From the NCBI RefSeq assembly GCF_036634175.1, contig NZ_JAZIFX010000001.1, positions 6,138,001 through 6,202,000 of the forward strand: a stretch of 64,000 nt of DNA. The letters are read 5' to 3'. The DNA is from Streptomyces sp. P9-A2 (GTDB lineage Bacteria > Actinomycetota > Actinomycetes > Streptomycetales > Streptomycetaceae). The notes beneath the pieces are model-generated. The model saw only the letters and a program-made list of their open reading frames with translations. It did no database searches and had not been told where the DNA came from. Below, in pieces: positions 154 through 46,965 of the stretch. How positions within the stretch are numbered: the stretch's first letter is position 1; each line of letters opens with the position of its first letter. A program made the translations under genes and the position numbers.

Positions 154-684
154 GTGAGGGGTGTGACGACGAAACCCATCAATCCCACCGACACCACCGA
201 AACCGGCCAGCCCATCACCCCCTGCGCCCCCTTGGAGGTGGTCCCGCCCCCGTCCCGCACCTTCGAGATGCGCTTCACCTCCACACCCCGCGGAGCCCGC
301 CTCGCCCGCCGCCTCGCGGCCGTCCGCCTGGACGCGTGGGGCATCCCGTACGCCACCGGCCCGCACGACGCGGTCGTGCTGATCGTCGCGGAGTTCACCG
401 CGAGCGCCGTACAGCACGGCCACGTCCCCGGCCGGGACTTCCACCTCCGCCTCCACGCGACCCCCGACGGCCGCACCGTACGCGTGGAGGTCACCGACAC
501 CCGCGCCGAACGCCACCCGCGCCGCCCCACCGCTCCGGAGGAGATGGACGGCACCGACGAGGCTGGCCGCGGCCTGCTTCTCGTATCGCGGCTTGCGACC
601 CGGTGGGACTGGCACCCGCGCCCGGACGGCCCGGGCAAGACCGTCTGGGCGGAGTACGCGCTCCTGCCCCTGTCCTGGCGGTGA
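154..684 (+). CDS. RsbW-like ATP-binding (HATPase_c_2) regulatory protein
   Basis: A 176-aa GHKL-fold protein of the small anti-sigma kinase type common in Streptomyces. The N-box is visible as AEFTASAVQHG, the G1 region as VEVTDTRAER and the G2 region as DEAGRGLLLVSRLA. There is no sensor, membrane or HisKA part, so it is a stand-alone ATP-binding module, presumably a soluble serine kinase or anti-sigma factor. The first GTG is at 154 and a second in-frame GTG lies three codons later, so the start is uncertain. It is co-directional with the large ATPase downstream, but 208 bases separate them, so a shared transcript is not assured. Its target cannot be named from the sequence. Confidence 0.8.
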   Translation: MRGVTTKPINPTDTTETGQPITPCAPLEVVPPPSRTFEMRFTSTPRGARLARRLAAVRLDAWGIPYATGPHDAVVLIVAEFTASAVQHGHVPGRDFHLRLHATPDGRTVRVEVTDTRAERHPRRPTAPEEMDGTDEAGRGLLLVSRLATRWDWHPRPDGPGKTVWAEYALLPLSWR

Positions 685-892: not shown

Positions 893-3337
893 ATGGACGA
901 CGCCACGGACCGGACCCCCGACCACGCAATGCCGCTGCCCGAGCTGGTGGAGGCCCGGCTGGCCGGCGACCGGAAGCTCACCGATCCGGTGAAGGCCCTC
1001 ATCCGTGAGGCACTCGGCGACTCGGGGAACGCCGAAGACGGCGCAGGCGCCTCCTCCGCCGGCCCCCTCTACCTGGGCAAGGTCACCGTCACCGGATTCC
1101 GCGGTGTCGGCTCCCGGACGCCGCTGAAGCTGAAGCCCAAGCCCGGAGTCACCCTCGTCGTCGGACGCAACGGCTCCGGCAAGTCGAGCATCGCCGAGGC
1201 CGTCGAGACCCTGTTCACCGGCACCAACGCCCACTACGCGGGACAGCACCCGAGCCACGCCGTCCACTGGCGCAACCTGCACCAGGGCGAACAGACCGTC
1301 GTCGAGGCCAAGCTGACCGTCGAGGGCGACCCGTCGCCGAGCACCCTCACCCGCACCTGGACCGGCGACGCCTTCACCGACTCCGAGGCCGTGCTCAGGC
1401 GGCCGGGACACGGCACCGTGCCGCTGGAACAGGCCGGCTGGGAGCGGGTGACCCGCGCCTACCGCCCCTTCCTGTCGTACGCCGACCTGGACAACCTGAT
1501 CAACGGCAAGCCGTCCGAGATGTACGACAACATCGCCGCGATCCTCGGCCTCGACCACCTCAACGCCGCCGCGCGGTGGCTGACGGCGGCGAAGAAGGAA
1601 CTCGACACCGTCGTGAACGCGGAGAAGGACAAGAAGCCGCTCCTCCACGCGGCCCTGGAGGAGGTCGGGCACGACGACCGGGCGCTCAAGGCCCTCCTGG
1701 CGATGGAGGAGAACGGTGGGCCCGACCACGCTGTGCTCGACGCCCTGATCGCCGGAGCGCCCACGTCCGACGAGGGCCGGCTGCGGGAAGCCCGGCTGGA
1801 GGCCGCCGCCGAGACCGAGGGGCCCGACCTCGACAAGGTCGGCGCCGCCGTCGACGCACTGCGGCACGCCGTCGCCGACCTCGACGACCTGAAGGGCACC
1901 GCGGCCGCCGACGCCCACAGCAGGGCCGAACTGCTCCAGGCGGCCCTCAGCCACAGCGACCGCCACGCCGACGACACGGCCTGCCCGGTCTGCGGCACAG
2001 AACAGGTCCTGGACCGGGAGTGGGCCGCGCGCGCCGAGGCGCAGATCGCCGCCCTCCTCCGCGAGGCCGCAGCCGTACGCGAGGCCGAGGCCGGCCTGCG
2101 GACCGCGACGCGCACCCTGCACAACCTGGTGCTCCTGCCTCGGGAGATCCCGGCCGTGCTCGCCGAACCGTGGGAGGCCTGGGGAGACTGCCGTCGGATC
2201 ACCGACCCCGCCGAACTCGCCGAGCGCGCGCTCAAGGCGGCGGTGACACTGACGGACGCGTGCGCGATCGTGGCCGGTGCGGCGCGCGAGGAACTGGCGG
2301 CCAAGGACGAACGCTGGCACGCGGTCGTCGGCCTGCTCGCCGAGTGGACGAAGCTCTCCCGGGAGGCCGAAGCCGCCAAGCCCCGTAGGACCGAGGTCAG
2401 CGCCGCCCTCAACTGGATCAAGAAGCTCACGACCGAGGTCCGCGACCTCCGCGTCGACGCCTTCGCTGGCCACACGCAGCGGATCTGGGAGAGGCTGCGC
2501 CAGCAGAGCAGCGTCGACCTGACCCACGTCGGCCTGCACGGCAGCGAGAGGGCCAACGTGCGCAAGCTGGTCATGGACGTCACCGTCGACGACACCGAGG
2601 CCTCCGCCCTGGGCGTCATGAGCCAGGGCGAGCTGCACTCGCTCGCCCTCTCCCTGTTCCTGCCCCGCACCGCCACGGCCGACAGCCCCTTCGGCTTCGT
2701 CGTCATCGACGACCCCGTGCAGTCCATGGACCCGGCAAAGGTCGACGGCCTGGCCCAGGTACTCGACGAACTCGGCCGCGACCGGCAGGTCATCGTCTTC
2801 ACCCACGACACCCGCCTCCCGCACGCCTTCCGCAGCCAGAACCTGCCGGTGACCGTGCTGAAGGTCGAGCGCGGCGAGAAGTCCAAGGTGCACGTCACCT
2901 GCGACACCGACCCGGTCAAGGAGGCCATCGACAACGCCATGGCCCTCGCCCAGACCACGAACTGCTCCGAGACGGCCCTACGCCACGTCCTGCCGTCCCT
3001 GTGCCGCGAGGCCCTGGCGACGGCGCTCGTCGAAGCGGCCTGGCTCCGCCGCAACCGCACCGGCCGGTCCGCCGAGTACCTCCAGTCCGCCATCGACACG
3101 ACCGAACGGCTCATCCCGCTCGCGTCGTTCGCCCTCTTCGACGACGGCCTCGTCCACCCCGACGACGACGTCAGGAACCGCCTCCGCCACCTCTACGGCA
3201 ACGAGTGCACGACCCTGATCCACCAGTGCCAGCAGGGCGCCCACCCCGGCGGCTTCCTCCCGCACCACCCGGTGGACTTCGTCCGGAAGGTCGAGGCCCT
3301 CGCCGCTCGGCTCCGCACCCCGGAGGTGAACGCCTGA
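893..3337 (+). CDS. SMC/RecN-like AAA ATPase with zinc-hook-like cysteines
   Basis: An 814-aa ABC-type ATPase. Walker A GRNGSGKSS is near residue 91, a CPVCG motif interrupts a long coiled-coil region near 363 (as in Rad50-type zinc hooks), a signature-like MSQGELHSLALSLF is near 577 and Walker B FVVIDDPVQSMD near 603. The last ~110 residues are a separate helical region. The reading frame is open much further upstream, but the ATG at 893 has GGGAG seven bases before it and gives the expected N-terminus. Proteins with this layout act on DNA ends or serve as defence ATPases. The function here is inferred, not known. Its stop overlaps the next ATG (TGATG), so the two are translationally coupled. 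Confidence 0.85.
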   Translation: MDDATDRTPDHAMPLPELVEARLAGDRKLTDPVKALIREALGDSGNAEDGAGASSAGPLYLGKVTVTGFRGVGSRTPLKLKPKPGVTLVVGRNGSGKSSIAEAVETLFTGTNAHYAGQHPSHAVHWRNLHQGEQTVVEAKLTVEGDPSPSTLTRTWTGDAFTDSEAVLRRPGHGTVPLEQAGWERVTRAYRPFLSYADLDNLINGKPSEMYDNIAAILGLDHLNAAARWLTAAKKELDTVVNAEKDKKPLLHAALEEVGHDDRALKALLAMEENGGPDHAVLDALIAGAPTSDEGRLREARLEAAAETEGPDLDKVGAAVDALRHAVADLDDLKGTAAADAHSRAELLQAALSHSDRHADDTACPVCGTEQVLDREWAARAEAQIAALLREAAAVREAEAGLRTATRTLHNLVLLPREIPAVLAEPWEAWGDCRRITDPAELAERALKAAVTLTDACAIVAGAAREELAAKDERWHAVVGLLAEWTKLSREAEAAKPRRTEVSAALNWIKKLTTEVRDLRVDAFAGHTQRIWERLRQQSSVDLTHVGLHGSERANVRKLVMDVTVDDTEASALGVMSQGELHSLALSLFLPRTATADSPFGFVVIDDPVQSMDPAKVDGLAQVLDELGRDRQVIVFTHDTRLPHAFRSQNLPVTVLKVERGEKSKVHVTCDTDPVKEAIDNAMALAQTTNCSETALRHVLPSLCREALATALVEAAWLRRNRTGRSAEYLQSAIDTTERLIPLASFALFDDGLVHPDDDVRNRLRHLYGNECTTLIHQCQQGAHPGGFLPHHPVDFVRKVEALAARLRTPEVNA

Positions 3338-3801
3338 TGCCCGGCACCTCCACCATCACCGCCCTCCTCGCGACGGTCGACGACCTCCTCACCGAAGGAC
3401 CGGGCGACAGCCCGCTGTCCCGGGCGGGCCGCGACCGCGGAGCGGCCTACGCCCTCCGCATCGCCCTGGAAGCAGCCGTCGACGCGGCCCTCACGGCCCG
3501 GGAAACCTCGCTCCGCGAGGTGAGCACGCGCGCGAAACTGCTCTGCCTGCGCCACTACGCCGGCCCTGTCCTGGCCCACCGCGTTAAAGCCCTTTGGAGC
3601 CAGCTCAGCGCCGGCTGCAAGTACCACCACGACGAACTCGGACCGACCCACGCCCAGGTGTGGGCCTGGCGGGCAGCCGTTGGGACGCTCGTCACGGAGC
3701 TTGCTGCACCCAGGACGATCCCGGAGTTCCCCCGGCAGCTCGGCGCCGAGCGCCTGCCTGCTGAGGTGACGGCGACGGCCCACGATGGGGAGCACACGTA
3801 G
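3337..3801 (+). CDS. Small all-alpha protein, HEPN-like by pattern (unknown function)
   Basis: A 154-aa protein predicted to be mostly helical. The ATG shares one base with the stop of the SMC-like ATPase and is preceded by GGAGGTGA, so the two are produced together and probably work together. The segment LSAGCKYHHDELGPTHAQ resembles the short C/HH-bearing helices attached to some bacterial ATPases that I recall as HEPN/DUF4145-like, but the canonical RxxxxH RNase motif is not evident. It could be a toxin/effector or simply an accessory subunit. I do not recognise a named family with certainty. Confidence 0.6.
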   Translation: MPGTSTITALLATVDDLLTEGPGDSPLSRAGRDRGAAYALRIALEAAVDAALTARETSLREVSTRAKLLCLRHYAGPVLAHRVKALWSQLSAGCKYHHDELGPTHAQVWAWRAAVGTLVTELAAPRTIPEFPRQLGAERLPAEVTATAHDGEHT

Positions 3802-3850
3802 GGACCGGCAGTAATGGGCTCTGGTTCGCCGGAACTGCCATGACGGCCGA

Positions 3851-3856
3851 TAGGGT
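3851..3856 (+). promoter_or_regulatory. Possible -10 element for the GrpE-like gene
   Basis: TAGGGT lies eight bases before the GTG at 3865, where no Shine-Dalgarno sequence is visible. That spacing would fit a leaderless transcript from an internal promoter. No convincing -35 is seen, so this is tentative. Confidence 0.3.
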
Positions 3857-3864
3857 TTCGAGCT

Positions 3865-5991
3865 GTGGAAATCGGATCTTTGGTTGAGCAATGTGCCGAC
3901 AGTGCCGTACATCGTATAGGTACCGTTCGCGCGCTGGACGAGAAGGAAGTCGTCGTCGAGTGGGAGGGGGATGAGAGCGAGCACTTGCCCGTGCCCGTAC
4001 CGGAGTCGGTGAGGACTCTCGTCCCGGGAACGATCCGGTACAAGGCCGCTACCGACCTCGCCGCACTCCAGAGCGAGTTCGAGAGTGACCCCGTGAAGGT
4101 GCTGGTCGGGCTGCTCCGTGAACTGCGTGAGCAGGTCACCATCACCGCTCTGCGGAAGCGTGTGGAGGGCATGGGGATCCTTGCGAACATGTCGCTCGAT
4201 GAGTGGGGCCAGATGCATCAAGTGCTCCGCGCCCAGCCCGAGGTGCACGCAACGAGCAAGGGCATGCGGTGGGGCGTGGGTAGGACGAGGTCCCGTGGCT
4301 CTCGTCAGCAGTTGTCCGCTTCCGAGGCACTTCGGAGGTTGGTGGGTAAGTCTCCCAAGCAGGCGAAGCAGTCGTTGCCCGCCGCCGTGTCCGCTGGACT
4401 GCATGAGTTGTTGCCGTATGAACAGCTCGCGGCACACGCGTGGGGCGTGCCCGTGACCGAGTGGCCGCGCCGCTGGGCGGAGCCCCATCCAGAGCGCGTC
4501 CCTGAGGAGATCCGCCTGATCGCCGTAGAGCACATCATCGAGATGTCGCGCGCCCGGAGTCGAATCGTGCTCCCTGGCATCGAACCCAGCCCGGCTGCGC
4601 TGAAGGCCGCGGAGATCCCGTCGTCCCTCGAACTCCTGCCGCTGCTCGTCCCCCTCGCTGCGATGCCTGCGTCAAGTTTCGCGGCGGACAAGGCGGCCAA
4701 GGCGCTCAGCGGTGAGCATGCGTGGAGCGCCCTGCGTGCGGTCATGGAGTGCTTCGAGCAGGCATTGTCCGTGTCCTCCGGATCCGAGGACGCCCCGGAT
4801 CAGGAAGAACGGTTGGCCCCTCTCTCGGCCAGGGCAAGAGAACTTCTGAAGACGGTGTTGATGAGGCGGCCCAAGGAGGATGACCTTCCGTGGCTGGACT
4901 TCGCGGAGGAGATGGCGTTCGGGGCCTGCGCCTTGTTGGCGGACCCCCGGACTCGGGAGCAGTCGAACGGACCTGTGCGGGAGTGGGCCCGGCACGTGGC
5001 CGACCATCCGGCTATTCCCGCCGAGCTTCGAGAAGGGGCCAGAACCGCCCAGGCCGCCGCGACGGTTGAAACCGCCGAAGTGGCGGAGACGGACAGCACA
5101 AGTGACGGCGAGAGGAAGCAGGAAGGCCGGGAGGCTGAGGCCGTACCCGAGGCGCCCAAGGTGCCTGCGGGACAGGCTGAGTCCCTGGATGTCGAAGCGG
5201 GGGGCGACGCCGCCGCCGGGGTGGAGGCCGCGCTCACGGCAGACGATTCTTCCCCGAGCATGGCGGAGGACGTCCCGGACGAGGCATCGGAGGCGGCGCA
5301 GAATGCGGCACAGGAACCCGAGCCTGACCCGCAGGCCGACATCGCGGCTCTGACCCGCCTGCTGGAGGAAGAACGCAGCAACGCCGAAGCGGCCCGGACC
5401 GAATACGAACGGCAGCGCCGGGTGGCATCGGAAGCACTGGCCGAGGCGGAAGCAACAGCGAACCGGTTGCAGCTCCGCATCGCGGACGAGGAGAAGCACC
5501 GCGCCGAGGCCGAGACGCGTGCCCACGCCGCCGAGACCAAGTGGGAATCGGCCCAGCGGGACCTGGAAGAGGCGGCCCAGCGAGCCGAAGCGATGACACG
5601 TCAGCTCCGGCGGCGGGACGACGAGCTGCGACAGTCCCGGCAGACCACACGCGGGGCATCGCAGGCGCAGTTGCGGCAGGCCAGGATCGACACGCTGCGT
5701 GTGCTCGCCACGGTCCTCGCCGAAGTCGCGGACCAGGCGGTCCACGAGGGGGAGGAGACAGGGCCGGCGAACGCTCTGTACCGGAGGGTACTGGCACGCG
5801 CGGCAGCAGCCGGGGTGCTGGACATCGGAGCACTCGGAGAAGAGACAGATTACGACCCGGTGATTCACCGGGCCCCAGGCGGACCGGCGGCACGGGTGGT
5901 GGTGGAGCGGCCCGGCTTCGTATGGCAGGGCCCGCGTGAGCCCGAGCCCATCGTGCTGGAACAGGCCATCGTCCGCCGGGCCGAGCAGTAG
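3865..5991 (+). CDS. Coiled-coil protein with C-terminal GrpE-like domain
   Basis: A 708-aa protein. Residues ~1-55 look like a small beta-barrel (SH3/Tudor/CarD-like; GTVRALDEKEVVVEWEG). A helical middle region follows, then an acidic Ala/Glu-rich linker (~390-490) and a heptad-rich coiled coil (~490-600). The C-terminus (~655-700) reads TDYDPVIHRAP and VVVERPGFVWQG, then VLEQAIVRR. That pattern and its order after a long coiled coil resemble the beta-domain of the nucleotide-exchange factor GrpE. An Hsp70-like gene follows directly, so the inferred role is a dedicated exchange factor or scaffold for that ATPase. The GrpE match is by eye only. Start is GTG with no clear ribosome site. Confidence 0.65.
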   Translation: MEIGSLVEQCADSAVHRIGTVRALDEKEVVVEWEGDESEHLPVPVPESVRTLVPGTIRYKAATDLAALQSEFESDPVKVLVGLLRELREQVTITALRKRVEGMGILANMSLDEWGQMHQVLRAQPEVHATSKGMRWGVGRTRSRGSRQQLSASEALRRLVGKSPKQAKQSLPAAVSAGLHELLPYEQLAAHAWGVPVTEWPRRWAEPHPERVPEEIRLIAVEHIIEMSRARSRIVLPGIEPSPAALKAAEIPSSLELLPLLVPLAAMPASSFAADKAAKALSGEHAWSALRAVMECFEQALSVSSGSEDAPDQEERLAPLSARARELLKTVLMRRPKEDDLPWLDFAEEMAFGACALLADPRTREQSNGPVREWARHVADHPAIPAELREGARTAQAAATVETAEVAETDSTSDGERKQEGREAEAVPEAPKVPAGQAESLDVEAGGDAAAGVEAALTADDSSPSMAEDVPDEASEAAQNAAQEPEPDPQADIAALTRLLEEERSNAEAARTEYERQRRVASEALAEAEATANRLQLRIADEEKHRAEAETRAHAAETKWESAQRDLEEAAQRAEAMTRQLRRRDDELRQSRQTTRGASQAQLRQARIDTLRVLATVLAEVADQAVHEGEETGPANALYRRVLARAAAAGVLDIGALGEETDYDPVIHRAPGGPAARVVVERPGFVWQGPREPEPIVLEQAIVRRAEQ

Positions 5992-6057
5992 GCACAACAG
6001 TTGATTTCCGCTGCCGGGGTTGAGGTTCCCGGCAGCCAGGGTCCATGGAGGACATCG

Positions 6058-7728
6058 GTGCAGCACGACAAGCCCTTGATCGGCATCGACTTCGGTACCG
6101 CGACCACCTTGGTGAGCCAACGGCTCCCCGGCGGCTCACCGGAAATAGTGCCGGTCGGTCACGGTACGTCCTGGATGCCGAGCGTGATCGCCGTCTCCGC
6201 CTCCGGTGAGCTCCTGTTCGGCGAAGGCGCCGAGGCGGCGGCCGGGGCCTCGGCGCTGCGGTCGGTGAAACAGTGCATCACTCTCGATCTGACGCCGCAT
6301 GAGCTACCGGGCCGGGAGGGGACCGACCCGATCCGGCACTCCGCTGACGACATGATCGAGCAACTGCTGAGGCACGTGCTGCTGCGTGCCAGGGCAGCCG
6401 GAGCGGACACCGAGGACGCCCACTTCCGTCTTGCCTGTCCCGCAATCTGGGACGGACCGCGGCGCAGGAGGCTCGCCACTCTGGCCAGGGCCGCGGGTGT
6501 CCCCGTGGCCGTCGGGGACGTCGTTGACGAGCCTGTGGCCGCCGGACTGGCCTGGTCGGAGGGGCTCTACTGGGAACTCGGCGAGGAACGGCCCGACGGG
6601 ACCACATTGGTCTTCGACTTCGGCGGGGGCACCCTCGACATCGCCGTGGTCGAGGTCACCGAGTCGCTCCAGGACGGCGCCCCCGAGCTCACCGTGCTCT
6701 CGGCGCGCGGTGTGGCCAGGGCCGGTGATGATCTGGACCTCCGGATCGCCCGGGATCTTGAACAGGACTTGGAGGCCCAGGGCATATCGGTGAACCGAAT
6801 GCCCGACCCTGCCACCCTCAGGGCGCTGATCCTTGCGGCAGCCCGACGGCTCAAGGTGCTGCTCTCCGACACGCGGTACGACGAACAGGCGGTTCCGGTC
6901 GGCGGCGGATACACCAACCTGCCCCTGCTCACCTATACGCGCGGACGGCTGGAAGAAGCGTTCCGGCCACAGATGCTGGAAGCCCTGGAGTACGTCAGGG
7001 CCGCCCTGTGCGAGTCACGGCTGCGTCGGCGCACTACGCCCGACATCGAGCGTCTGAAGCGTATGCCGCTGTGGGAACTGGCGACCGATGTGCAGCATGT
7101 GCTGCTCGCCGGCGGCATGTCCCAGGTGCCGCTGGTACGCCGGCTTTTCGAGGAGAACTTCTCCCACGCCCAGGTGGAGTTCGACAGATCCCTGGAATCA
7201 CCGGAACAGTCGGTCGTGACCGGCCTGGTGGTACACAACTACCATCGCCTCAACCTCCCCCGGCCCGGTTTCGACCTGGTGCTGGAATGGGACGACCTGA
7301 GCGGAGGCCGGCGCAGCGAACTGCTCTACCCGGCCTTCCAGCCCCTTTATGAGCCGCATCGGGTGGTGCGCGGTGAGGAACTGGCCCACCGCTGGCGGGG
7401 GACACCGGATGTCCATCGGGTCACCAAAGGCCGGCTCCGGGCGAAGGCCGTGGACGGGGAACCGATGGACTTCTCGGTGGACGGTACCGCACTGCCGTAT
7501 CTGCCCGTTGAACTCCACCCGAGGACAGCCTTCTCGCTTGCCCTGCGGCTCAACGGCGAGATGGTCGTACATGATTCGACGGCCCGGCCCATGATTTTCA
7601 GGGTGGAGAGGTGGCCCGTGCTCCGGAAGGGAGAGCAGGAGGCCATCCGCCTGACGCCGGTACGAAAGGGCGCCCTGGTACACCAGCGGGTGTCATTCAC
7701 CGACGTGTATTCCCATCCGTGGCAGTGA
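6058..7728 (+). CDS. Hsp70-like ATPase with short substrate domain
   Basis: A 556-aa actin-fold chaperone-type ATPase. Phosphate-1 motif IGIDFGTATT is near residue 9, phosphate-2 VFDFGGGTLDIAVV near 185 and adenosine motif LLAGGMSQVPLVRRLFEE near 350. A beta-rich C-terminal part of ~170 residues follows, without a long helical lid or an EEVD-like tail, so this is a divergent Hsp70 and not housekeeping DnaK. The GTG at 6058 is chosen because GGAGG ends six bases before it; an upstream in-frame TTG has no such site. It directly follows the GrpE-like gene and converges on the SNF2 helicase. Confidence 0.85.
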   Translation: MQHDKPLIGIDFGTATTLVSQRLPGGSPEIVPVGHGTSWMPSVIAVSASGELLFGEGAEAAAGASALRSVKQCITLDLTPHELPGREGTDPIRHSADDMIEQLLRHVLLRARAAGADTEDAHFRLACPAIWDGPRRRRLATLARAAGVPVAVGDVVDEPVAAGLAWSEGLYWELGEERPDGTTLVFDFGGGTLDIAVVEVTESLQDGAPELTVLSARGVARAGDDLDLRIARDLEQDLEAQGISVNRMPDPATLRALILAAARRLKVLLSDTRYDEQAVPVGGGYTNLPLLTYTRGRLEEAFRPQMLEALEYVRAALCESRLRRRTTPDIERLKRMPLWELATDVQHVLLAGGMSQVPLVRRLFEENFSHAQVEFDRSLESPEQSVVTGLVVHNYHRLNLPRPGFDLVLEWDDLSGGRRSELLYPAFQPLYEPHRVVRGEELAHRWRGTPDVHRVTKGRLRAKAVDGEPMDFSVDGTALPYLPVELHPRTAFSLALRLNGEMVVHDSTARPMIFRVERWPVLRKGEQEAIRLTPVRKGALVHQRVSFTDVYSHPWQ

Positions 7729-7801
7729 GGGTGCCCGGCGGTGGCCCGGAGCAGCCCTGGGTCACTGCCAGACATCCGGTCGATCACCGTCGGCTAACCG
7801 G

Positions 7802-10800
7802 TCAGTCGCCCTCGACCAGGACGAGGGCGACGGTCTCGGTGGACAGACTGAAGCGCGCGTCCCGCTCCATCTGCGCCAGGAGGGCCTCCCGCCGCGTCTC
7901 CAGGTGCGTTGCCCGGCTCTCGTAGAGGCGCCGGATGGACGGGTGGCTCACCTCGTGGGCGAGACGACGGGACCGCGAGATTTTCACGTGGAAGGTGTCG
8001 CTCACCGTGGCTCGACGGCCTTCGGCCAGCCGCGCGTTCTCGGCCTCGTAGAGCCGCTTGGTCGTGCGCTCCTGCACGGCCGCGAGGGCCTGCACCTCCT
8101 CCAGGGCCTCGGTGAGCAACGCGTCGACAGCGGCGGGTAGCGACTTGTCGGCACTGGTGAGTTCACCGCGGGCGAGAGAGGTGAGCAGCGCGGTCCCGAC
8201 CTCGGGTACCTCCCGCATCGTCCGGATGTCGACCGCGGTGGTCCACAGCTCACGGCGCGAACGGGTGCCGTCCGTACGCGCCAGCCGGACTTCCACCAGA
8301 TAGCGGGAGCCGGGTGGCAGGCCGGGTAGCCGTGCCCGCCCGTAGCGCAGGAGCGGCTCGGGTTGCTGCTCGTACCACCACTGGGCGGTGCGCACCAGCG
8401 GATGGCGGACACTGAGCAACGGAACCCCGCTTGCCGACGAGGCGCTCGCGGTCAGGCAGAAGCGCGTCGGGGAGCCGCTCTTGAGTCTGGCCAGCAGATC
8501 GCCGCGAGGGTGGGGGAAGGCGCCCGTGTCCATCGCCTCGTACATCGTTTTGAGCAGGTCGCCGCTGCCTGCGACGTCCACCAGGTCGTCCTCGTGGGGG
8601 ACGTCACGCAGCAGTCCGTATCCGCTGTCGGTGAGGAAGCACTCGACGAGTCCGCGGATCTCCTGGGGGCCCAGATAGCGCCCCCTGCCCGGACTGGTTT
8701 CGTCGAATCCCTCGATGAGCAGGCCGTCCAGGCCGGTGAGAAGGGCCTGGGCCTTGTTCAGGCTCTCCAGGTCCTTCTCGCGATCCACCCGCGCGACCGC
8801 GATCCGGTCGACCTGGCGGCGCCGCTGCTCCGGGGAGAGGTGCGGGTCCAGGACGATGCGGTGCAACTCCTTGAGGCGCCCGCGCAGGATCGGTTCGAGT
8901 TCCCCGATGGAGTCCTGGAAGACCCCAATGCGCGAGTAGAGGCGCTGGAAGATGTCGGTCTCAATGGTGCCGGGAACCTGCATGTTGAAGATGAAGATCT
9001 TCTCGTGCTGCTGCCCGAACCGGTCGAGCCGCCCGATACGCTGCTCGACCCGCATCGGGTTCCAGGGCAGGTCGTAGTTGACCAGGACGTTGCAGAACTC
9101 GAAGTCCAGGCCCTCGCTGCCCACCTCACTCACCAGCAGCAGATCGAACGCGCCGGCGCGGAAGTCCTTCATGATGCGTTCCCGCTCGGCCGGCGGGATC
9201 TTCCCGTGCATGACCCGGACCTTGAACTCCGGTGTCAGCCTCTCCTCCAGGTACTCCAGGGTGCGGGTGAAGAAGGAAAAGACCATTGCCTGCCGCATGC
9301 CCTTGGTGCGGGCACCGCGCAGCATGTCCTTGAACCGCTCGAACTTGGTGTCCACGGGGAGTTCCCGCAGCAGGGGGCGCAGCATCGAGAGGTCGTCGGC
9401 CTGCTTCGCCAGCTCGTGGGCGAGACTCTCGGGCGAGGCGGCCGATCTCGTACGGTTGCCGTTCGGGGTGTCCTCGGAGTCGTCGACGACCTCCGAGTCG
9501 TAGAGGAGTTCCTCGGCGGTCTCCTCCTCGGCCGGCCGGGGCGAGAAACGCTCCCGCAGCCGCTGCTGCATGGCCGGGATACAGCTGGCCGCCTGCCGCA
9601 GCCACATCTGTGCGGCGAAGCCGGCGGCCATGCCGCTGCGAGCGGCGCGCTCAAGGCACCAGGCGTGCAGGCCGTCGTAGAACGCACGCTCCTGCGAGGT
9701 CCAGCGGACCGCGACGTCCTCGGCTTCCCGCAGGGCCTTGCGGTCCGGGGTGTCGGCCTTGCGCGTCCGGTTGACGACACCCGCGAGGGCGTTGAGTTCG
9801 GCGATACACCGCCGCGCCTCGGCGCGTTGCCGGGGGGACAGCGGCTCACCGGTGCTCAAGAGTTCCCGGAGACGCCGGAACTCCGGTCGTCGGGCGGTGA
9901 TCTTTCCGTACGTGGAGGTCTGGACTCGCATGAGCCGGGAGTGCAGGGCTCGAGCGCCGTCCGTGGTGTCCGCGCCGCCCTCGGCGATACCGACGGCCAC
10001 CGCGTTCAGGTGGCGGTTGGGCTCGAGCTGGTTCTCGAAGACCTTGGGTTCCGGGAAGGACGCCTCGTCGAGAAGGTGAACGAGGTTGTAGAGGTCCTGG
10101 TTGCCGAGGTTGAGGGGAGTGGCAGAGAGGAAGATCAGCGCGTCGGCCCAGTCGGCGAGCAGGGCCGCCGCGGCGTGGCTCCGACTGCTCGCGTTGCGCA
10201 GATAGTGCGCCTCGTCCACGATCACAAGGTCGAACCGGGGCTGGAGCTCGGCGAGTTCATCGAGCTGCCCGGCCCGCCGAAGCCGTTCCAGAGACACCAC
10301 TCCGGCGAACGGCTCACTGGTGTCCCCGCTGCGGAACAGCTCCACCAACTTCGTCATGCCCTCTTTGTCGAGGACGCACAGATCCCGGTCGAAGCGGTCG
10401 CGCATCTCGTTCTGCCACTTGGTGACAAGGGCGGCAGGGCACACGACGAGCCCTCGGAAGTGGGTGCCACCGCGCCGTCCCGAGGGACGCCGCAGGTGGG
10501 TGCGCTGCTCCAGTTCGTTCCAGATCAAGCCGGCTTCGATGGTTTTACCGAGACCGACTTCATCCGCGATCAGCAACCGCTGGCGATCCGAACTCATCAG
10601 CTTGAGCACGGGACGGAACTGGTAGGGCCGGAAAATTGTGCGGCTCGACTGGTACGAGTACACGACATCGGTGAGGGGCGTGCTCAGCTTGGCGAGGGTG
10701 AGCGCGAGTGCGGTCCGGTCGGCGGGAGTGGGCGGACGGAGAATCCAGTCCTCGGGGTCGTCCGAACTGGGCGGAAGCGCCTCAAGATCCTCCTCGAAGG

Positions 10801-11395
10801 CCATACGGGAGCGTCCGCCGCTCGCGTCCTGCAATCTGTACTGGACGCCTCCGTCCCGCGTCGGCGTCGCCTTGATCACGGTGAAGGTCTCCCGCCTGCC
10901 CGCAAGACGGACGAGGTCGCCACGGACGAACGCGGGTGTGACCTCTTCGGGGACAGCGGCGCACCAATCCCTGTACTGAACGAGGGCCTGGTGAAGCAGA
11001 TGACCGTCGTCTATGTCACGGAGGCGCTTCCGCTGAGGGGCAACGGCATCTCCACCGTTGCTCAACGCGAACCCGACGAAGATCCGGCTGGCCCGCGATT
11101 CGAAGAGGTAGATGCCGTCGGGCAGCTTGTTTTGGGTATCGCTGCCATGTGCTTGCGGCACGGGATGCTGTCGTGCCGCGGGCACCGGGATTCGTTCGGA
11201 GCATTCCGGGCTGTCGTAGAAGAAGTGTTGCGCTTCGCTGAGCGCCTCCAGAGCCGTTGCTCCGGTCGGCTCACTCCAGGGGATGTACTGCAGCCGGAGC
11301 CGGTCGTCATCGAGTGACACAGTTGCTGCTGCAGAGCGCTTCTCGCTCTCTGATGCCGCTTTCTCCCTCACTTCATCCCCCTGTCCTATGGACAC
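7802..11395 (-). CDS. RapA/HepA-type SNF2 helicase
   Basis: A 1197-aa superfamily-2 ATPase. Motif I is ADEVGLGKTIEAGLIWNE (~277), motif II VDEAHYLRN (~392), motif III FLSATPLNLGNQDLYN, and the helicase C domain has VSEVGSEGLDFEFC (~757) with the arginine-finger region EQRIGRLDRFGQ. The NLGNQDLYNLVHLLD stretch is typical of RapA/HepA and of DISARM-type SNF2 enzymes. The N-terminal ~240 residues are family-specific, with a small beta-barrel-like part (FVRGDLVRLAGRRETFTV); the C-terminal ~350 residues are unrecognised. It probably remodels nucleoprotein or translocates on double-stranded DNA. It converges on the Hsp70-like gene with a 73-bp gap. Confidence 0.9.
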   Translation of the reverse strand: MSIGQGDEVREKAASESEKRSAAATVSLDDDRLRLQYIPWSEPTGATALEALSEAQHFFYDSPECSERIPVPAARQHPVPQAHGSDTQNKLPDGIYLFESRASRIFVGFALSNGGDAVAPQRKRLRDIDDGHLLHQALVQYRDWCAAVPEEVTPAFVRGDLVRLAGRRETFTVIKATPTRDGGVQYRLQDASGGRSRMAFEEDLEALPPSSDDPEDWILRPPTPADRTALALTLAKLSTPLTDVVYSYQSSRTIFRPYQFRPVLKLMSSDRQRLLIADEVGLGKTIEAGLIWNELEQRTHLRRPSGRRGGTHFRGLVVCPAALVTKWQNEMRDRFDRDLCVLDKEGMTKLVELFRSGDTSEPFAGVVSLERLRRAGQLDELAELQPRFDLVIVDEAHYLRNASSRSHAAAALLADWADALIFLSATPLNLGNQDLYNLVHLLDEASFPEPKVFENQLEPNRHLNAVAVGIAEGGADTTDGARALHSRLMRVQTSTYGKITARRPEFRRLRELLSTGEPLSPRQRAEARRCIAELNALAGVVNRTRKADTPDRKALREAEDVAVRWTSQERAFYDGLHAWCLERAARSGMAAGFAAQMWLRQAASCIPAMQQRLRERFSPRPAEEETAEELLYDSEVVDDSEDTPNGNRTRSAASPESLAHELAKQADDLSMLRPLLRELPVDTKFERFKDMLRGARTKGMRQAMVFSFFTRTLEYLEERLTPEFKVRVMHGKIPPAERERIMKDFRAGAFDLLLVSEVGSEGLDFEFCNVLVNYDLPWNPMRVEQRIGRLDRFGQQHEKIFIFNMQVPGTIETDIFQRLYSRIGVFQDSIGELEPILRGRLKELHRIVLDPHLSPEQRRRQVDRIAVARVDREKDLESLNKAQALLTGLDGLLIEGFDETSPGRGRYLGPQEIRGLVECFLTDSGYGLLRDVPHEDDLVDVAGSGDLLKTMYEAMDTGAFPHPRGDLLARLKSGSPTRFCLTASASSASGVPLLSVRHPLVRTAQWWYEQQPEPLLRYGRARLPGLPPGSRYLVEVRLARTDGTRSRRELWTTAVDIRTMREVPEVGTALLTSLARGELTSADKSLPAAVDALLTEALEEVQALAAVQERTTKRLYEAENARLAEGRRATVSDTFHVKISRSRRLAHEVSHPSIRRLYESRATHLETRREALLAQMERDARFSLSTETVALVLVEGD

Positions 11396-12460: not shown

Positions 12461-12790
12461 CGTCACTCTCTTCTCGGCCGCCCTGGCGGTGGCCGTGTTC
12501 TTCTCGACCCGGGCGAGGGACGCGTCGCGCCGCTCTGTGGATTCGTCCCCGTGCCGGCACTGGCATCGGCCACGGCGTCGCGTGCTCCGGGCCCGCCCCG
12601 TACGGCGGTTCCTGTCTCCGGAGGATGCCCGATGTGCGGGCCCCCGTCCTTTTCGGCACGCTTGCCGGAGGATGTCGATCGGTAGTACAGCATGTGCCCG
12701 ATCCCATACGCCTCGTGATCGGGTCTGCCCGGCCGAGCAGAGTAGCCGGACCTGGGCGGGACGGCCACCCCGTACGTCAGGATGGTTCCC

Positions 12791-13642
12791 ATGAACGCCA
12801 TCATCTCCACATCCGGACTCGCCGCCGAACTGGCGGGCGGCGACCCGCCGGTGCTGCTCGACGTCCGCTGGCGGTTGAGCACGGCGGCGACGGCCGGCGA
12901 GCCGCCGTTCGACGGCCGGGCCGCCTACCGCGAGGGGCACCTTCCCGGTGCCGTATTCGTCGACCTGGACAGCGAGTTGGCCGCAGTATCGACCGGGCGG
13001 GGGCGCCATCCGCTGCCCGATCCGGAGGAGTTCGGTGCGGCGATGCGCCGGGCGGGCGTGTCGTCGGGCGTGCCGGTGGTCGTGTACGACGGCGGGACGG
13101 GCTGGGCGGCCGCCCGCGCGTGGTGGCTGCTGCGGTGGGCGGGTCACCCGGACGTGCGGGTCCTCGACGGCGGGTTGCCGTCCTGGGACGGTCCGCTCGA
13201 GACCGCGCTGCCGGAGCCGGCCGAGGGCGACTTCGTGCCCGTATGGGGGGCGGCCGGGCTGCTCGACGCCGACGGAGCGGGGGAGCTGGCCCGGTCCGGG
13301 CTGTTGCTGGACGCCCGCGCGGGAGAGCGCTACCGGGGCGAGGTCGAGCCGATCGACCCGGTCGGCGGCCACATCCCGGGCGCGGTCTCGGCGCCCACCA
13401 CCGAGAACGTCGGCCCGGACGGACGCTTCCTGCCCGCCGGGGAACTGGCCACGCGGTTCCGGGAGTTGGGCGTGTCCATGGACAAGCGGGTCGGTGTGTA
13501 CTGCGGTTCGGGGGTCTCCGCGGCGCACGAGGTGCTGGCGCTCGCGGTGGCGGGCATCCCGGCGGAGCTGTACGTCGGCTCCTGGTCGGAGTGGTCGTCG
13601 GACCCGGAGCGGCCGGTCGCGGTCGGACCGGACCCGCAGTAA
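12791..13642 (+). CDS. Two-domain rhodanese (3-mercaptopyruvate/thiosulfate sulfurtransferase)
   Basis: A 283-aa protein with two rhodanese domains. The catalytic loop YCGSGVSAAHE, with Cys near residue 237, resembles the CG(S/T)GVT loop of 3-mercaptopyruvate sulfurtransferases rather than the CRKG loop of thiosulfate enzymes. N-terminal domain landmarks are LLDVRW and YREGHLPGAVFVDLD. The enzyme transfers sulfane sulfur to cyanide or thiols in the cytoplasm. An ATG at 12782 is in frame, but the ATG at 12791 has AGGA eight bases before it and is preferred. It stands next to sepH as in other Streptomyces. Confidence 0.88.
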   Translation: MNAIISTSGLAAELAGGDPPVLLDVRWRLSTAATAGEPPFDGRAAYREGHLPGAVFVDLDSELAAVSTGRGRHPLPDPEEFGAAMRRAGVSSGVPVVVYDGGTGWAAARAWWLLRWAGHPDVRVLDGGLPSWDGPLETALPEPAEGDFVPVWGAAGLLDADGAGELARSGLLLDARAGERYRGEVEPIDPVGGHIPGAVSAPTTENVGPDGRFLPAGELATRFRELGVSMDKRVGVYCGSGVSAAHEVLALAVAGIPAELYVGSWSEWSSDPERPVAVGPDPQ

Positions 13643-42136: not shown

Positions 42137-43909
42137 GGAGCCGTAATTTAACTACTGCCGGAGTTGATCTCGTTGTCGTGGTGCTCGATCACGCGCTTCA
42201 AGGCTTCGAGCGTGCGGGGAGGGCGGGTCCGGCGGAAGACGAGGACTCTGGCGAGTTCGGGCCCGGCGAAGGCCAGCATCGGCTTGGACCTCCCGGCGTG
42301 GTAACTCAGCACGTTGCGCTTGCGGCCCATCAGCTCGGCCGCGAGGGTCAGGGTGACGGTGTTGCGGCTGCGGAGCACGGCGACCAGGACGCGGTGGCGG
42401 TGATCGAGGGTGCCGAAGCCGGGGTTGCGGCCGCGGCCGTCCCTGCCTGCGCTCTGGCGTTCGACTTCGGTCAGGACCTGTTGGCATGGTTCGAGCTGGA
42501 GCACGAGCTGTTCGAACTGTTCTCGGGGCATGCCCGTGAGTGCGGGGTGGGTGAGGAGGAAGGTGGCCTCGGTCGGGACCGGAGGTCCCGACTCGTCGCG
42601 TGGATCTTCCGGAAGCTGCTGGTCGGGGTCCTGCGGGGCGATGGTGTAGTTCCACTCGCCGTGGAACTCGTCCCGTTTGACCCGCCGCTCGGCGCTCTTG
42701 CGTTCAGCTCGGGTGAGCACGCGGCCGGTGGGGTAAGCATTCTCGTCCAGTGCGGCATGAACGGTCAGTCCGGTGCTGGTGCGGGTGGCTGAGATGGTCT
42801 CCAGCAGCACTTCGTAGCTGGTCAGAGGCTGCCCGCGCAGGCTGTGGGTGATCCGGGAGAACAGCCGGTGTTCCACTTTGTTCCATTTTGAAGTACCTGG
42901 CGGGAAGTGCATGACGGTGATGCTCAGTCCGCACTCGTCTGCGAAGTCGGCCAGGCCCATCTTGAACAGGCGGGAGTCGGCCGAGTTGGCCCCTCCGGAA
43001 TCGGCGGTGACCAGCAAGCGGTCCACGCTGGGGTAGTCGAGGCGCCCTTGGATCTTCCACCAGCGGCGCAGGGACTCCACCGCGAAGGCGGCGGTGTTTC
43101 GGTCGGTGCCCACGTTTACCCAGCCGCTGTCGCGCCCCAGGTCGTAGATGCCGTACGGAATGGCGACCGGGGTGTCGGGGCCGACGAAGTCGTGGTCCGG
43201 GGCGGTGATCGGCTGGCCTTTGGGGCGGTAGGTGCGGCCGGGCCGGGCGAAGTCGCCGATCGGTTCCTTCTGTTTCGTGTCCACGCTCACCACCGGCAGG
43301 CCCCCCGCCAGGAAGCGTTCGGCGGCGGTGTTGATGTGACGGAACTGGGCGTCTCGGTCGGGCACCTGACTGCCGGCTTGAGTCTTGGCCATGCCCTGCA
43401 GGCTGAAGCCCATCGCACGCAGTAGGCTGCCGACCACTGGGGCGCTGACCGGATGACCGGCATCGGTCAACTCCCGGGACAAGTCCCGCAGCGAGGCAGT
43501 GGTCCAGCGCAGCGGGGACACCGGATCACCCACCTCACGCGGCTCGATCAACAACTCGAGAGCCGCCACCAGACCGGGATCGCGCTCGGCGGCAGACTTG
43601 CGCCCGCCGCCGGGTCTGCGCACCCGCCCCAACGCCTGTGTTCCGCCCGCGAGTTCCTCACGCCCTCGTGCGACGGTCGACTCCGAGACCTCCGCCAGCC
43701 TGGCCACGGCCGCGATCCCTCCATGCCCCAGCGCCTCGGCCTCGGAAGCCAGATACAGACGGCGCTGCCGCTCGTCCAGATGCGGCAGCACCGCCGCGAA
43801 CTTCGTATCCAGTACCGCCAGGACTTCATCCGGAATCGCCACAACAGCTCAACTACCACACAGAACCGAGATATTGACCCGAATCCGGCAGTAGTTAAAT
43901 TACGGCTCC
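42137..43909 (-). mobile_element. ISAzo13-like element at the orfA/orfB junction
   Basis: Perfect 25-bp terminal repeats (left starts GGAGCCGTAATTTAACTACT, right is its complement, 43885-43909) and a TCA target duplication (42134-42136, 43910-43912) define an exact 1773-bp insertion. Confidence 0.92.
42148..43842 (-). CDS. ISAzo13-family transposase
   Basis: A 564-aa transposase. An N-terminal HTH part (GIAAVARLAEVSESTVARGR) precedes the RNase-H-type core: PVVSVDTKQKEPIGDF (first Asp), LLVTADSGGANSADSRLFKM (second Asp) and TSKWNKVEHRLFSRITHSLR (Glu). These fit the ISAzo13 pattern. The frame is complete and fills the element; possibly active. Confidence 0.93.
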   Translation of the reverse strand: MAIPDEVLAVLDTKFAAVLPHLDERQRRLYLASEAEALGHGGIAAVARLAEVSESTVARGREELAGGTQALGRVRRPGGGRKSAAERDPGLVAALELLIEPREVGDPVSPLRWTTASLRDLSRELTDAGHPVSAPVVGSLLRAMGFSLQGMAKTQAGSQVPDRDAQFRHINTAAERFLAGGLPVVSVDTKQKEPIGDFARPGRTYRPKGQPITAPDHDFVGPDTPVAIPYGIYDLGRDSGWVNVGTDRNTAAFAVESLRRWWKIQGRLDYPSVDRLLVTADSGGANSADSRLFKMGLADFADECGLSITVMHFPPGTSKWNKVEHRLFSRITHSLRGQPLTSYEVLLETISATRTSTGLTVHAALDENAYPTGRVLTRAERKSAERRVKRDEFHGEWNYTIAPQDPDQQLPEDPRDESGPPVPTEATFLLTHPALTGMPREQFEQLVLQLEPCQQVLTEVERQSAGRDGRGRNPGFGTLDHRHRVLVAVLRSRNTVTLTLAAELMGRKRNVLSYHAGRSKPMLAFAGPELARVLVFRRTRPPRTLEALKRVIEHHDNEINSGSS

Positions 43910-45124: not shown

Positions 45125-46965
45125 CTTGACTCTGTCGGGGATCTTGGAGTTTCGCGGTGCGGCAGCGTGGTCAACGGGCATGCTCGGGTAGTTCCGGTTA
45201 CCGATGCAGCTGTCGAGGTGCCCGTTGTCCCTCCGTCCCCGTTCCGGTGAGCAAGTCCCGCCTCTGACCGTGCAGATCGCGCGGGCGAGCAACCCGGACG
45301 GCACGACGGCAATATGGGTGCGGGACCGCCTCGACGGGCTGTGGCGCGACGAGGACTTCGCCGACTGGTACCCGCGTGACGGGCGTCCGGGCCTCTCGCC
45401 CGCTCAACTGGCCACTGTCTGCGTGCTGCAGTTCCTGCTCGGCCTGTCGGACCGGCAGGCTGCCGAGGCGGTGCGCTGCCGCATCGACTTCAAGTACGCG
45501 ATGGCCATGGAGCTGGACGACTCCGGCTTCCACCACAGCGTGCTGGCCGACTTCCGCGACCGCCTCACCGAAGGCGACCGAGCTGACCACCTCCTCGACC
45601 TCGTACTTGCCCGTCTCAAGGAGTCCGGCCTGGTGCGCGAGCGCACCACACAGCGCACCGACTCCACCCACGTCCTGGCCGCGGTGCGCGACCTGACCCG
45701 CCTGGAACTGATCACCGAGGCGGTACGCGCCGCACTGGAAGAAGTCGCCGGCACCTCTCCTCACCTGCTGGACGAACTGGTCGACGAGGACTGGGCACGC
45801 CGCTACGGCCGACCGGTCCGCCTGGGCAAGAACCCCACCAAGCCCCAGACCAGGATCCTCGCCACCGGAAACGACGCCGTCCGGCTCCTGGAACACCTCT
45901 ACCAGCACGGTTCAGACCGCACATCCGGCCCCCGTGTCCAGGCCCTGCGCCAGATCATGGTGCAGAACTACCACCGCGACACCGCAGGCCGCCTGCGCTG
46001 GCGCACCGCCGAGACGGAAGGCGGGCCCGGACTGCCGCCCTCATCCCAGGCGATCGTCTCTCCCTACGACACCTCGGCCCGCTACGCACGCCACGGACAC
46101 ATCATCAGCTGGAAGGGGTTCTCCGCTCACCTGACCGAGACCTGCGCCCCCGACGGCCCCAACGTGATCACGGACGTGGCCACCACTGCGGCCACCACGC
46201 ACGACAGTAAAGTCTTGCCCGGCATCCACACCCGCCTGCACCGCCGCGGCCTGCTGCCCGCCGAGCACTTGGTCGACAGCGGCTACACCTCCCTGGTCCA
46301 CCTGGACCAGGCCACCCGACAACATCAGGTCACCGTCACCGGACCGCTGCCCGGCAACCCCACCCGCCAGCACCGCCGAGGCGAGGGCTTCGGCCGGGAC
46401 GACTTCCACATCGACTACGACCGCCGGCAAGTCACCTGCCCCCAGGGCCAGGTCAGCCAGGGCTGGCACGGCCCCTACCCGACCTCCTCACCCACCGCGG
46501 CCCCGCTGATCGTGGCGAAGTTCGCCAAGAGCCAGTGCCACCCTTGCCCCGTCCGCGCCCGGTGCACCAGCTCGCGCGACGGCTCACGGAACGTCGGCTT
46601 TCCGCCGCGCAAGCTCCGTGACCTCCAAGTCCGCGTCCGGGACGAGCAGCAGACGCCTGAATGGAAGACCCGCTACGCGGTCCGCTCCGGAGTAGAGGGC
46701 ACGGTCAACGAGTTCGCCCACGGTCACGGCATGCGCCGCTGCCGCTACCGCGGCCAAGAGAAAGCCCACGTCCAGCACGTCCTGACTGCCATCGCCGTCA
46801 ACATCGAGCGCCTCAGCAGACTGCCACCGACCACGCAAGCGCCCCCGTCCCGCCAGCCGACCGCCTTCCAAAACTACCTCGACCAGCACAAAATCCCCCG
46901 GCCGAAGTCCTGGCGAAAACTCGGCAGTTAACCCCGGAAGTTCCAAGATCCCCGACAGAGTCAAG
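45125..46965 (+). mobile_element. IS1182-type element
   Basis: Inverted repeats CTTGACTCTGTCGGGGATCT (45125) and its complement (to 46965) are perfect over ~24 bp. One transposase fills the interior. No obvious target duplication. Confidence 0.88.
45204..46931 (+). CDS. IS1182-family transposase
   Basis: A 575-aa transposase with the IS1182 layout: N-terminal DUF772-like part ([20 protein letters not shown]), core [20 protein letters not shown] (first Asp), [14 protein letters not shown] (second Asp), a CPVRARC cysteine-containing insert, and the C-terminal [20 protein letters not shown] (Glu). Complete frame; may be active. Confidence 0.93.

What the first reader, a model, noticed from the sequence alone, without database searches (positions are those of the whole stretch)
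893..11395. Five-gene cluster: SMC-like ATPase, helical partner, GrpE-like factor, Hsp70-like ATPase, RapA-type helicase
The sequence shows coupled starts between the ATPase and the small protein, then a GrpE-like protein and an Hsp70-like ATPase, and a convergent SNF2 helicase only 73 bp away. SMC/zinc-hook ATPases and DISARM/RapA-type SNF2 enzymes are known parts of anti-phage systems. A private chaperone and exchange-factor pair joined to them is not a combination I recall as described. Inference: the chaperone module may assemble or switch the nucleic-acid machines.
Basis: partly seen in the sequence, partly recalled or inferred. Interest (0 to 1): 0.85.

Follow-up and report, generated by a model that had tools for sequence, protein, structure and literature searches.

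The report
Helicase with private Hsp70–GrpE pair
A rare gene set in soil bacteria ties a DNA-motor protein to its own chaperone and chaperone-recycling factor; the three stay together in three bacterial families, often near anti-virus genes, and are probably an untested anti-phage machine, while the two genes beside them belong to something else.

Summary
The five genes are real and correctly placed, but they are two modules. Three form a conserved unit: a long GrpE-like exchange factor (3865–5991), a lidless Hsp70 (6058–7728) and a convergent RapA/DrmD-type SNF2 ATPase (7802–11395). This trio, with helicase and Hsp70 stops between 35 bp overlapping and 80 bp apart, is in all 11 loci found with the long exchange factor, in three actinobacterial families. 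A GrpE-like/Hsp70 pair without the helicase nearby makes up 17 of 28 Hsp70 matches. The SMC-like ATPase and its small partner are separable: no SMC-like match in 4 of 11 trio loci, pieces only in one, and both genes on two Streptomyces plasmids without annotated chaperones. In 6 of 11 trio loci type I R-M, GmrSD, BREX or candidate defence genes lie within about 7 kb; in the other five a bulk scan found none of these. It is not DISARM. Best reading: a new three-gene, probably anti-phage module in which a private Hsp70 cycle serves an SNF2 motor; the mechanism is inferred. Ten searches of an open-access library found no report of this combination; preprints and newer catalogues could not be checked.

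The parts
3865..5991 (+). Exchange factor with GrpE-type C-terminus (708 aa): N-terminal SH3/tudor-like barrel (res. 6-51), winged-helix-like part (57-136), helical region (152-409), disordered linker (413-486), long helix (489-627), GrpE-type end (634-705)
6058..7728 (+). Hsp70 with DnaK-type nucleotide-binding domain and beta substrate-binding domain, no helical lid (556 aa; ORF opens at 6001)
7802..11395 (-). RapA/DrmD-type SNF2 ATPase (1197 aa), convergent with the Hsp70 gene
   Evidence: PF00176 and PF00271; PADLOC DrmD 1.7e-125; NCBIfam DrmD 314.8 bits, under its cut-off of 610; best solved relative RapA, 2e-39
893..3337 (+). SMC/Rad50-like ATPase: separate neighbouring module, not part of the trio
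   Evidence: SMC_N, AAA_21, AAA_23; Walker B in 120, Walker A in 114, CPxCG in 109 of 120 listed relatives; no match beside the trio in L010, L012, L020, L063
3337..3801 (+). Small helical-looking partner of the SMC-like ATPase, start overlapping its stop
   Evidence: no Pfam, PADLOC or NCBIfam match; also follows the SMC-like gene on two Streptomyces plasmids, 48% identical

Best explanation
The core is a three-gene module: an SNF2-type ATPase that probably translocates on DNA, a lidless Hsp70, and a dedicated exchange factor whose GrpE-type C-terminus is joined to barrel, winged-helix-like and helical parts. Shown: the three genes keep one arrangement across three families; the helicase motifs are invariant in the five sequences compared; the Hsp70 keeps DnaK's nucleotide-binding motifs; the exchange factor resembles GrpE in sequence profile and fold. 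Inferred: it acts against phages or other invading DNA. The long exchange factor, seen only where the helicase is present, would tether the Hsp70 cycle to the helicase or to the protein-DNA complexes the helicase meets. Hsp70 binding and GrpE-driven release would then either strip invader replication or transcription complexes (as DnaK/DnaJ/GrpE take apart lambda's initiation complex; recalled) or hold and release the helicase in a controlled way. I think stripping somewhat more likely than gating. No nuclease or methylase belongs to the trio, so it would disassemble or block rather than cut, or work beside neighbouring restriction systems.
For: Exchange factor, Hsp70 and convergent helicase together in 8 of 8 loci found with the exchange-factor profile, in two further families (L020; L063) and in the window: 11 of 11, stop-to-stop -35 to +80 bp. 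Starting from the helicase, 5 of 295 genus genomes match at 1e-100 and all 5 are trio loci. In a class draw of 394 genomes the Hsp70 profile matches 2 and the helicase profile 8; the 2 are among the 8. Long exchange factor (659-851 aa as open frames) in all 11, short one (106-376 aa, plus one over-long frame) in the 17 without helicase. Trio helicases are one side of a 100/100 branch. Invariant Walker A, DEAH and motif VI residues; K71, E158, D187, T192 of the Hsp70 invariant in 24 sequences (their role is recalled from DnaK). Defence genes near 6 of 11 trio loci.
Against: No experiment. In 5 of 11 trio loci a bulk scan found no R-M, BREX or GmrSD neighbour. The Hsp70-GrpE-like pair often occurs without the helicase and without such neighbours (17 of 28 matches), so its basic job may not be defence. 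No J-domain partner was identified. The genes converge, so they are not one operon. The Hsp70 tree needs two changes of the 'helicase' label, so a single origin of the trio is not shown.
Confidence: 0.55

Rival explanations
1. All five genes are one defence system: SMC-like ATPase, small partner, chaperone pair and helicase act together.
For: SMC-like and small genes stand just upstream of the trio in 6 of 11 loci: window, L005, L006, L007, L009, L011.
Against: No SMC-like match beside the trio in L010, L012, L020, L063 and only pieces on both strands in L008. An 830-member family, far larger than the 35 exchange-factor relatives. On two plasmids the pair is followed by a UvrD-type helicase instead. 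GC3 of the SMC-like gene (0.94) differs from the trio's (0.79-0.85).
Confidence: 0.08
2. The trio is a stress, repair or RNA-polymerase-recycling module rather than defence: a RapA-like motor with a chaperone pair that rescues stalled complexes.
Against: Sparse occurrence: 5 of 295 genus genomes for the helicase at 1e-100, 8 loci in the species collection for the exchange factor. More than one chromosomal site within Streptomyces. Four kinds of defence neighbour in 6 of 11 loci.
Confidence: 0.2
3. Chance company in a defence island: the helicase is one system and the GrpE-Hsp70 pair another.
For: The pair occurs without the helicase (17 of 28 matches) and six related helicases occur without the pair; the genes converge.
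Against: Same tight arrangement in three families whose proteins are 37-45% identical to the window's Hsp70 and helicase, always with the long exchange factor; trio helicases form one group. Hsp70 and helicase distances correlate (r 0.995 over 11 loci, driven by the deep splits; 0.69 among 7 close Streptomyces loci).
Confidence: 0.1

Closest known systems
DISARM, DrmD subunit
   Same: The helicase is of the DrmD kind: PADLOC DrmD 1.7e-125 over residues 172-1073.
   Different: 314.8 bits against NCBIfam's DrmD cut-off of 610; no DUF1998 (DrmB-type) domain within 300 kb; Hsp70 and GrpE-like partners are not DISARM parts as described in the passages read of PMC9142583.
RapA (bacterial RNA-polymerase-associated SNF2 ATPase)
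   Same: Closest solved relative of the helicase, E 2e-39.
   Different: Only parts of the ATPase core match well; linked to a chaperone pair and often to defence genes.
GAP1-N2 GTPase conflict systems with HSP70 and GrpE (Kaur et al. 2020, PMC7159879; passages)
   Same: Private Hsp70 and GrpE in an actinobacterial conflict system; about 14% of GAP1-N2 neighbourhoods according to the passage.
   Different: Those are centred on GTPases, with DnaJ or TPR fusions; no SNF2 helicase is mentioned with them in the passages seen.
CoCoNuT type IV restriction systems (PMC11090510; passages)
   Same: Hsp70-like domains in a defence system.
   Different: Fused to or encoded with McrB/McrC homologues, nucleotide motifs described as degenerate; GrpE is not mentioned in the main text (0 occurrences). 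Here the DnaK motifs are kept.
DrmD-like SNF2 plus UvrD/HelD-like pairs in other actinobacteria (L047-L052)
   Same: Sister helicase group. Trio locus L063 shares PDC-S68 with L052 (42%) and its UvrD gene with L051.
   Different: Partner is a UvrD/HelD-like protein in 6 of 6; no Hsp70 or exchange factor in the stretches fetched.

Membership tests
DISARM | DrmD-type helicase above the curated cut-off | tested here: not met
   314.8 bits against 610
DISARM | DUF1998 protein DrmB, a core component, encoded nearby | tested here: not met
   PF09369 has 4 places in the genome, the nearest 309 kb beyond the window's right end
DISARM | DrmA helicase and DrmC nuclease encoded nearby | tested here: inconclusive
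   not among the 25 of 95 families shown for 45 neighbours; the rest of that list was not shown
Hsp70 | HSP70 Pfam family above gathering score | tested here: met
   59.8 bits, cut-off 20.6
Hsp70 | DnaK-type nucleotide-binding residues kept | tested here: met
   K71, E158, D187, T192 invariant in 24 relatives, aligned with DnaK; their roles are recalled
Hsp70 | Beta substrate-binding domain followed by helical lid | tested here: inconclusive
   beta domain present and aligned with DnaK/BiP (425-437 residues, rmsd about 7, several rows); no lid helices in the model
GrpE | PF01025 match | tested here: not met
   no match; PF01025 finds two other places in this genome, not this gene
GrpE | GrpE fold: long helix plus beta domain | tested here: met
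   four best VIA-align rows are GrpE; profile match 2.4e-4; Foldseek first hit GrpE at 0.011
GrpE | Accelerates nucleotide exchange of its Hsp70 | not testable with these tools
   gene lies just upstream of the Hsp70 in 28 of 28 matches, which is only suggestive
GAP1-N2 GTPase conflict systems | GAP1-N2 GTPase gene in the neighbourhood | not tested
   no model of that domain was searched
CoCoNuT | McrB/McrC homologues encoded with the Hsp70-like domain | not tested
   not searched for specifically
Anti-phage defence system | Protects cells from phage | not testable with these tools
   only neighbourhood evidence, 6 of 11 loci

The most novel reading that the evidence does not exclude
The trio is a defence machine in which a dedicated Hsp70 cycle powers or gates an SNF2 translocase: the multidomain exchange factor docks on the helicase, on DNA or on RNA polymerase and makes client release happen at the invader's nucleoprotein complex, so that phage replication or transcription machinery is dismantled without cutting DNA.
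Probability: 0.35. Interest if true: 0.88.

Novelty: new variant of a known kind. Interest (0 to 1): 0.62.

Why it matters
DrmD, DpdE and BrxH-type helicases sit in many defence systems, and how they act and are kept in check is largely open (recalled). A locus that gives such a motor its own Hsp70 and exchange factor makes two questions testable: can a chaperone cycle be the effector or the safety catch of a nucleic-acid defence system, and can nuclease-free defence work by taking protein-DNA complexes apart? The exchange factor itself, a GrpE-type end joined to barrel and winged-helix-like parts, would be a new way to place nucleotide exchange at a client site.

Tried and rejected
Five-gene system: rejected on the separability of the SMC-like/small module. 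DISARM membership: rejected on score and on the DUF1998 search. Viral origin: viral contigs gave only 9 DnaK-like matches at 23-31% identity. Plasmids: one weak Hsp70 match; the helicase matches 678 records, all under 60% identity and none covering 80%.

Weak or negative results: the exchange-factor query against 200 family genomes found only the own genome, with only 5 candidates scored per genome. The species scan used two peptide patterns from Streptomyces sequences and missed the trios in L020 and L063. A draw of 197 genomes from L020's family gave no second case. Pair-only loci were searched for a common third gene: the shared genes found were mostly between two closely related contexts (L066, L067), with some generic matches; two loci have WD40/NTPase proteins and one an NB-ARC/TPR protein nearby. 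PADLOC on 38 of 43 neighbour ORFs of five Streptomyces trio loci (the SMC-like frames and one overlapping frame dropped) gave only PDC-S30 (2) and C3a206 (1) at 1e-20. Control: 92 of 144 listed ORFs, from 10 of the 16 pair-only loci, gave mad3 (2), caspase, HEAT-ARM, pVip-kinase, subtilase and mad8 (1 each), and no R-M, BREX or GmrSD. The one-sided Fisher value of 0.0085 for 6/11 against 0/10 overstates the case: the loci are related, the six were found by targeted scans and the others by bulk scans, and flanks differ.

Biases: the helicase profile A4 and Hsp70 profiles A2 and A3 contain trio members, so their scores for those genomes are inflated; L063 is in none of the three. Absence of the helicase in pair-only loci was judged only within stretches of 5.3 to 20 kb. 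The two class draws report the same number of genomes and the same listed handles, but the full lists were not shown. 'Winged-helix-like' and 'HelD-like' are my readings of sequence and secondary structure; Pfam was run on one HelD-like gene (L052, UvrD-type domains).

Literature: 10 searches. Passages only were seen of PMC11090510, PMC7159879, PMC13175485 and PMC9142583; everything else was seen as a listing with the start of the abstract. A 2025 preprint by Mordret et al. was seen only as an entry in a reference list.
Full report
OBSERVATION. The genome has 8.39 Mb in 2 contigs and the window is C1:6138001-6202000. The stop of the SMC-like gene and the start of the small gene overlap by one base; the Hsp70 and SNF2 genes converge with 73 bp between their stops. 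GC3 is 0.94 for the SMC-like gene, 0.86 for the small one and 0.79, 0.81 and 0.85 for exchange factor, Hsp70 and helicase, against 0.92 for the genes at 154-684 and 12782-13642.

WHAT TRAVELS TOGETHER. The exchange factor has 35 relatives in the protein collection, all named ones Streptomyces. A scan of the species collection with its profile gave 8 loci, all Streptomyces, and all 8 carry exchange factor, Hsp70 and convergent helicase in that order. Hsp70 profiles found the same trio in a genome of another family (L020; helicase 41% and Hsp70 37% identical) and in a third family (L063; helicase 45%, Hsp70 40%). With the window this makes 11 of 11, stop-to-stop -35 to +80 bp. Starting from the helicase, 5 of 295 genus genomes match at 1e-100 and all five are trio loci. 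In class draws of 394 genomes the Hsp70 profile matches 2 and the helicase profile 8; the 2 are among the 8. The other 6 show no Hsp70 or exchange factor within the 12.8-20 kb fetched, and each has a UvrD/HelD-like gene nearby. Trio helicases form one side of a 100/100 branch; on the Hsp70 tree the helicase label needs two changes, so one origin is neither shown nor excluded. In family f6, 12 of 121 genomes hold 18 Hsp70 matches, all 18 inspected. Each of the 28 Hsp70 matches examined in all has the GrpE-like gene just upstream on the same strand, but 17 of 28 have no helicase in the stretch fetched, and there the exchange factor is short (106-376 aa, apart from one over-long frame of 647 aa in L066). 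So the constant pair is GrpE-like plus Hsp70, and the long exchange factor goes with the helicase.

WHAT DOES NOT BELONG. The SMC-like and small genes stand beside the trio in the window, L005, L006 (SMC-like match from residue 212 on), L007, L009 and L011, and in L008 with the SMC-like gene in pieces; neither is found in L010 or L012. No SMC-like match was found in L020 or L063 (the small gene was not searched there). The search for the SMC-like protein returned 830 relatives. Two Streptomyces plasmids carry SMC-like, small and a UvrD-type helicase gene in line, one with an extra small CDS between the first two, with no Hsp70 or GrpE among the annotated neighbours; the annotation table of that collection is incomplete.

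WHERE IT SITS. Just upstream of the window are hsdM, hsdS and hsdR (L003 12712-18787), ending 5.1 kb before the exchange factor. HsdR and neighbours also precede the cluster in L007 and L009; GmrSD lies 0.2 kb from the helicase in L010; L020 has GmrSD at 0.4 kb, BrxL at 4 kb and PglX at 6 kb; L063 has a GajB-like UvrD and PDC-S68 in line with the exchange factor. That is 6 of 11. The other five Streptomyces loci gave only PDC-S30 and C3a206, and 10 of 16 pair-only loci gave no R-M, BREX or GmrSD gene. The right flank sseA-sepH is seen in the window, L005, L006 and L008, and not in the stretches of L007, L009, L010, L011 or L012, so the trio sits at more than one site. No viral contig gave a close relative.

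MECHANISM. Shown: linkage, fold, kept motifs. Likely: a role against mobile DNA. Inferred: the exchange factor's extra parts couple Hsp70 release to the helicase or its target. Private Hsp70-GrpE in conflict systems is in print (Kaur et al. 2020; passages), as are Hsp70-like parts of CoCoNuTs (passages). None of the papers returned by the ten searches was seen to join them to a DrmD/RapA-type protein. PADLOC-DB here is of 2023 and the library holds no bioRxiv collection, so a recent description cannot be excluded.

VERDICT. A real, conserved three-gene module with two separable neighbours; a new combination of defence-associated parts; function untested.

Noticed in passing
L003 12712-18787 (genome C1 6130712-6136787), just left of the window: A complete-looking type I restriction-modification operon (hsdM, hsdS, hsdR) next to the cluster, followed by an XRE/DUF5753 regulator (L003 19059-19994) and an HATPase gene (window 154-684).
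   Followed up: partly
window 42148-43842 and 45204-46931: Two transposase genes (ISAZ013-type and DDE_Tnp_1_6), far from the cluster.
   Followed up: no
genome C1 1444143-1445721: A second Hsp70-like/GrpE pair in the same genome; it may belong to the GTPase-centred conflict systems with HSP70 and GrpE described by Kaur et al. 2020.
   Followed up: no
L047-L052: Sister DrmD-like SNF2 helicases with a UvrD/HelD-like neighbour in 6 of 6 genomes, some with McrBC-like, GmrSD or PDC-S68 genes near: possibly another unnamed two-helicase system.
   Followed up: partly
L082 7926-14468 and L083 7944-14482: SMC-like ATPase, small protein and UvrD-type helicase in line on two Streptomyces plasmids: possibly a system of their own.
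   Followed up: partly
L064-L079: Stand-alone GrpE-like/Hsp70 pairs in family f6, up to three per genome, some near WD40/NTPase or NB-ARC proteins; their job is unknown.
   Followed up: partly
L065 3001-3765, L069 6764-8389 and L077 8740-10212: Three of the 18 Hsp70 matches in family f6 carry an in-frame TAG in the search rows, so some copies may be decayed.
   Followed up: no
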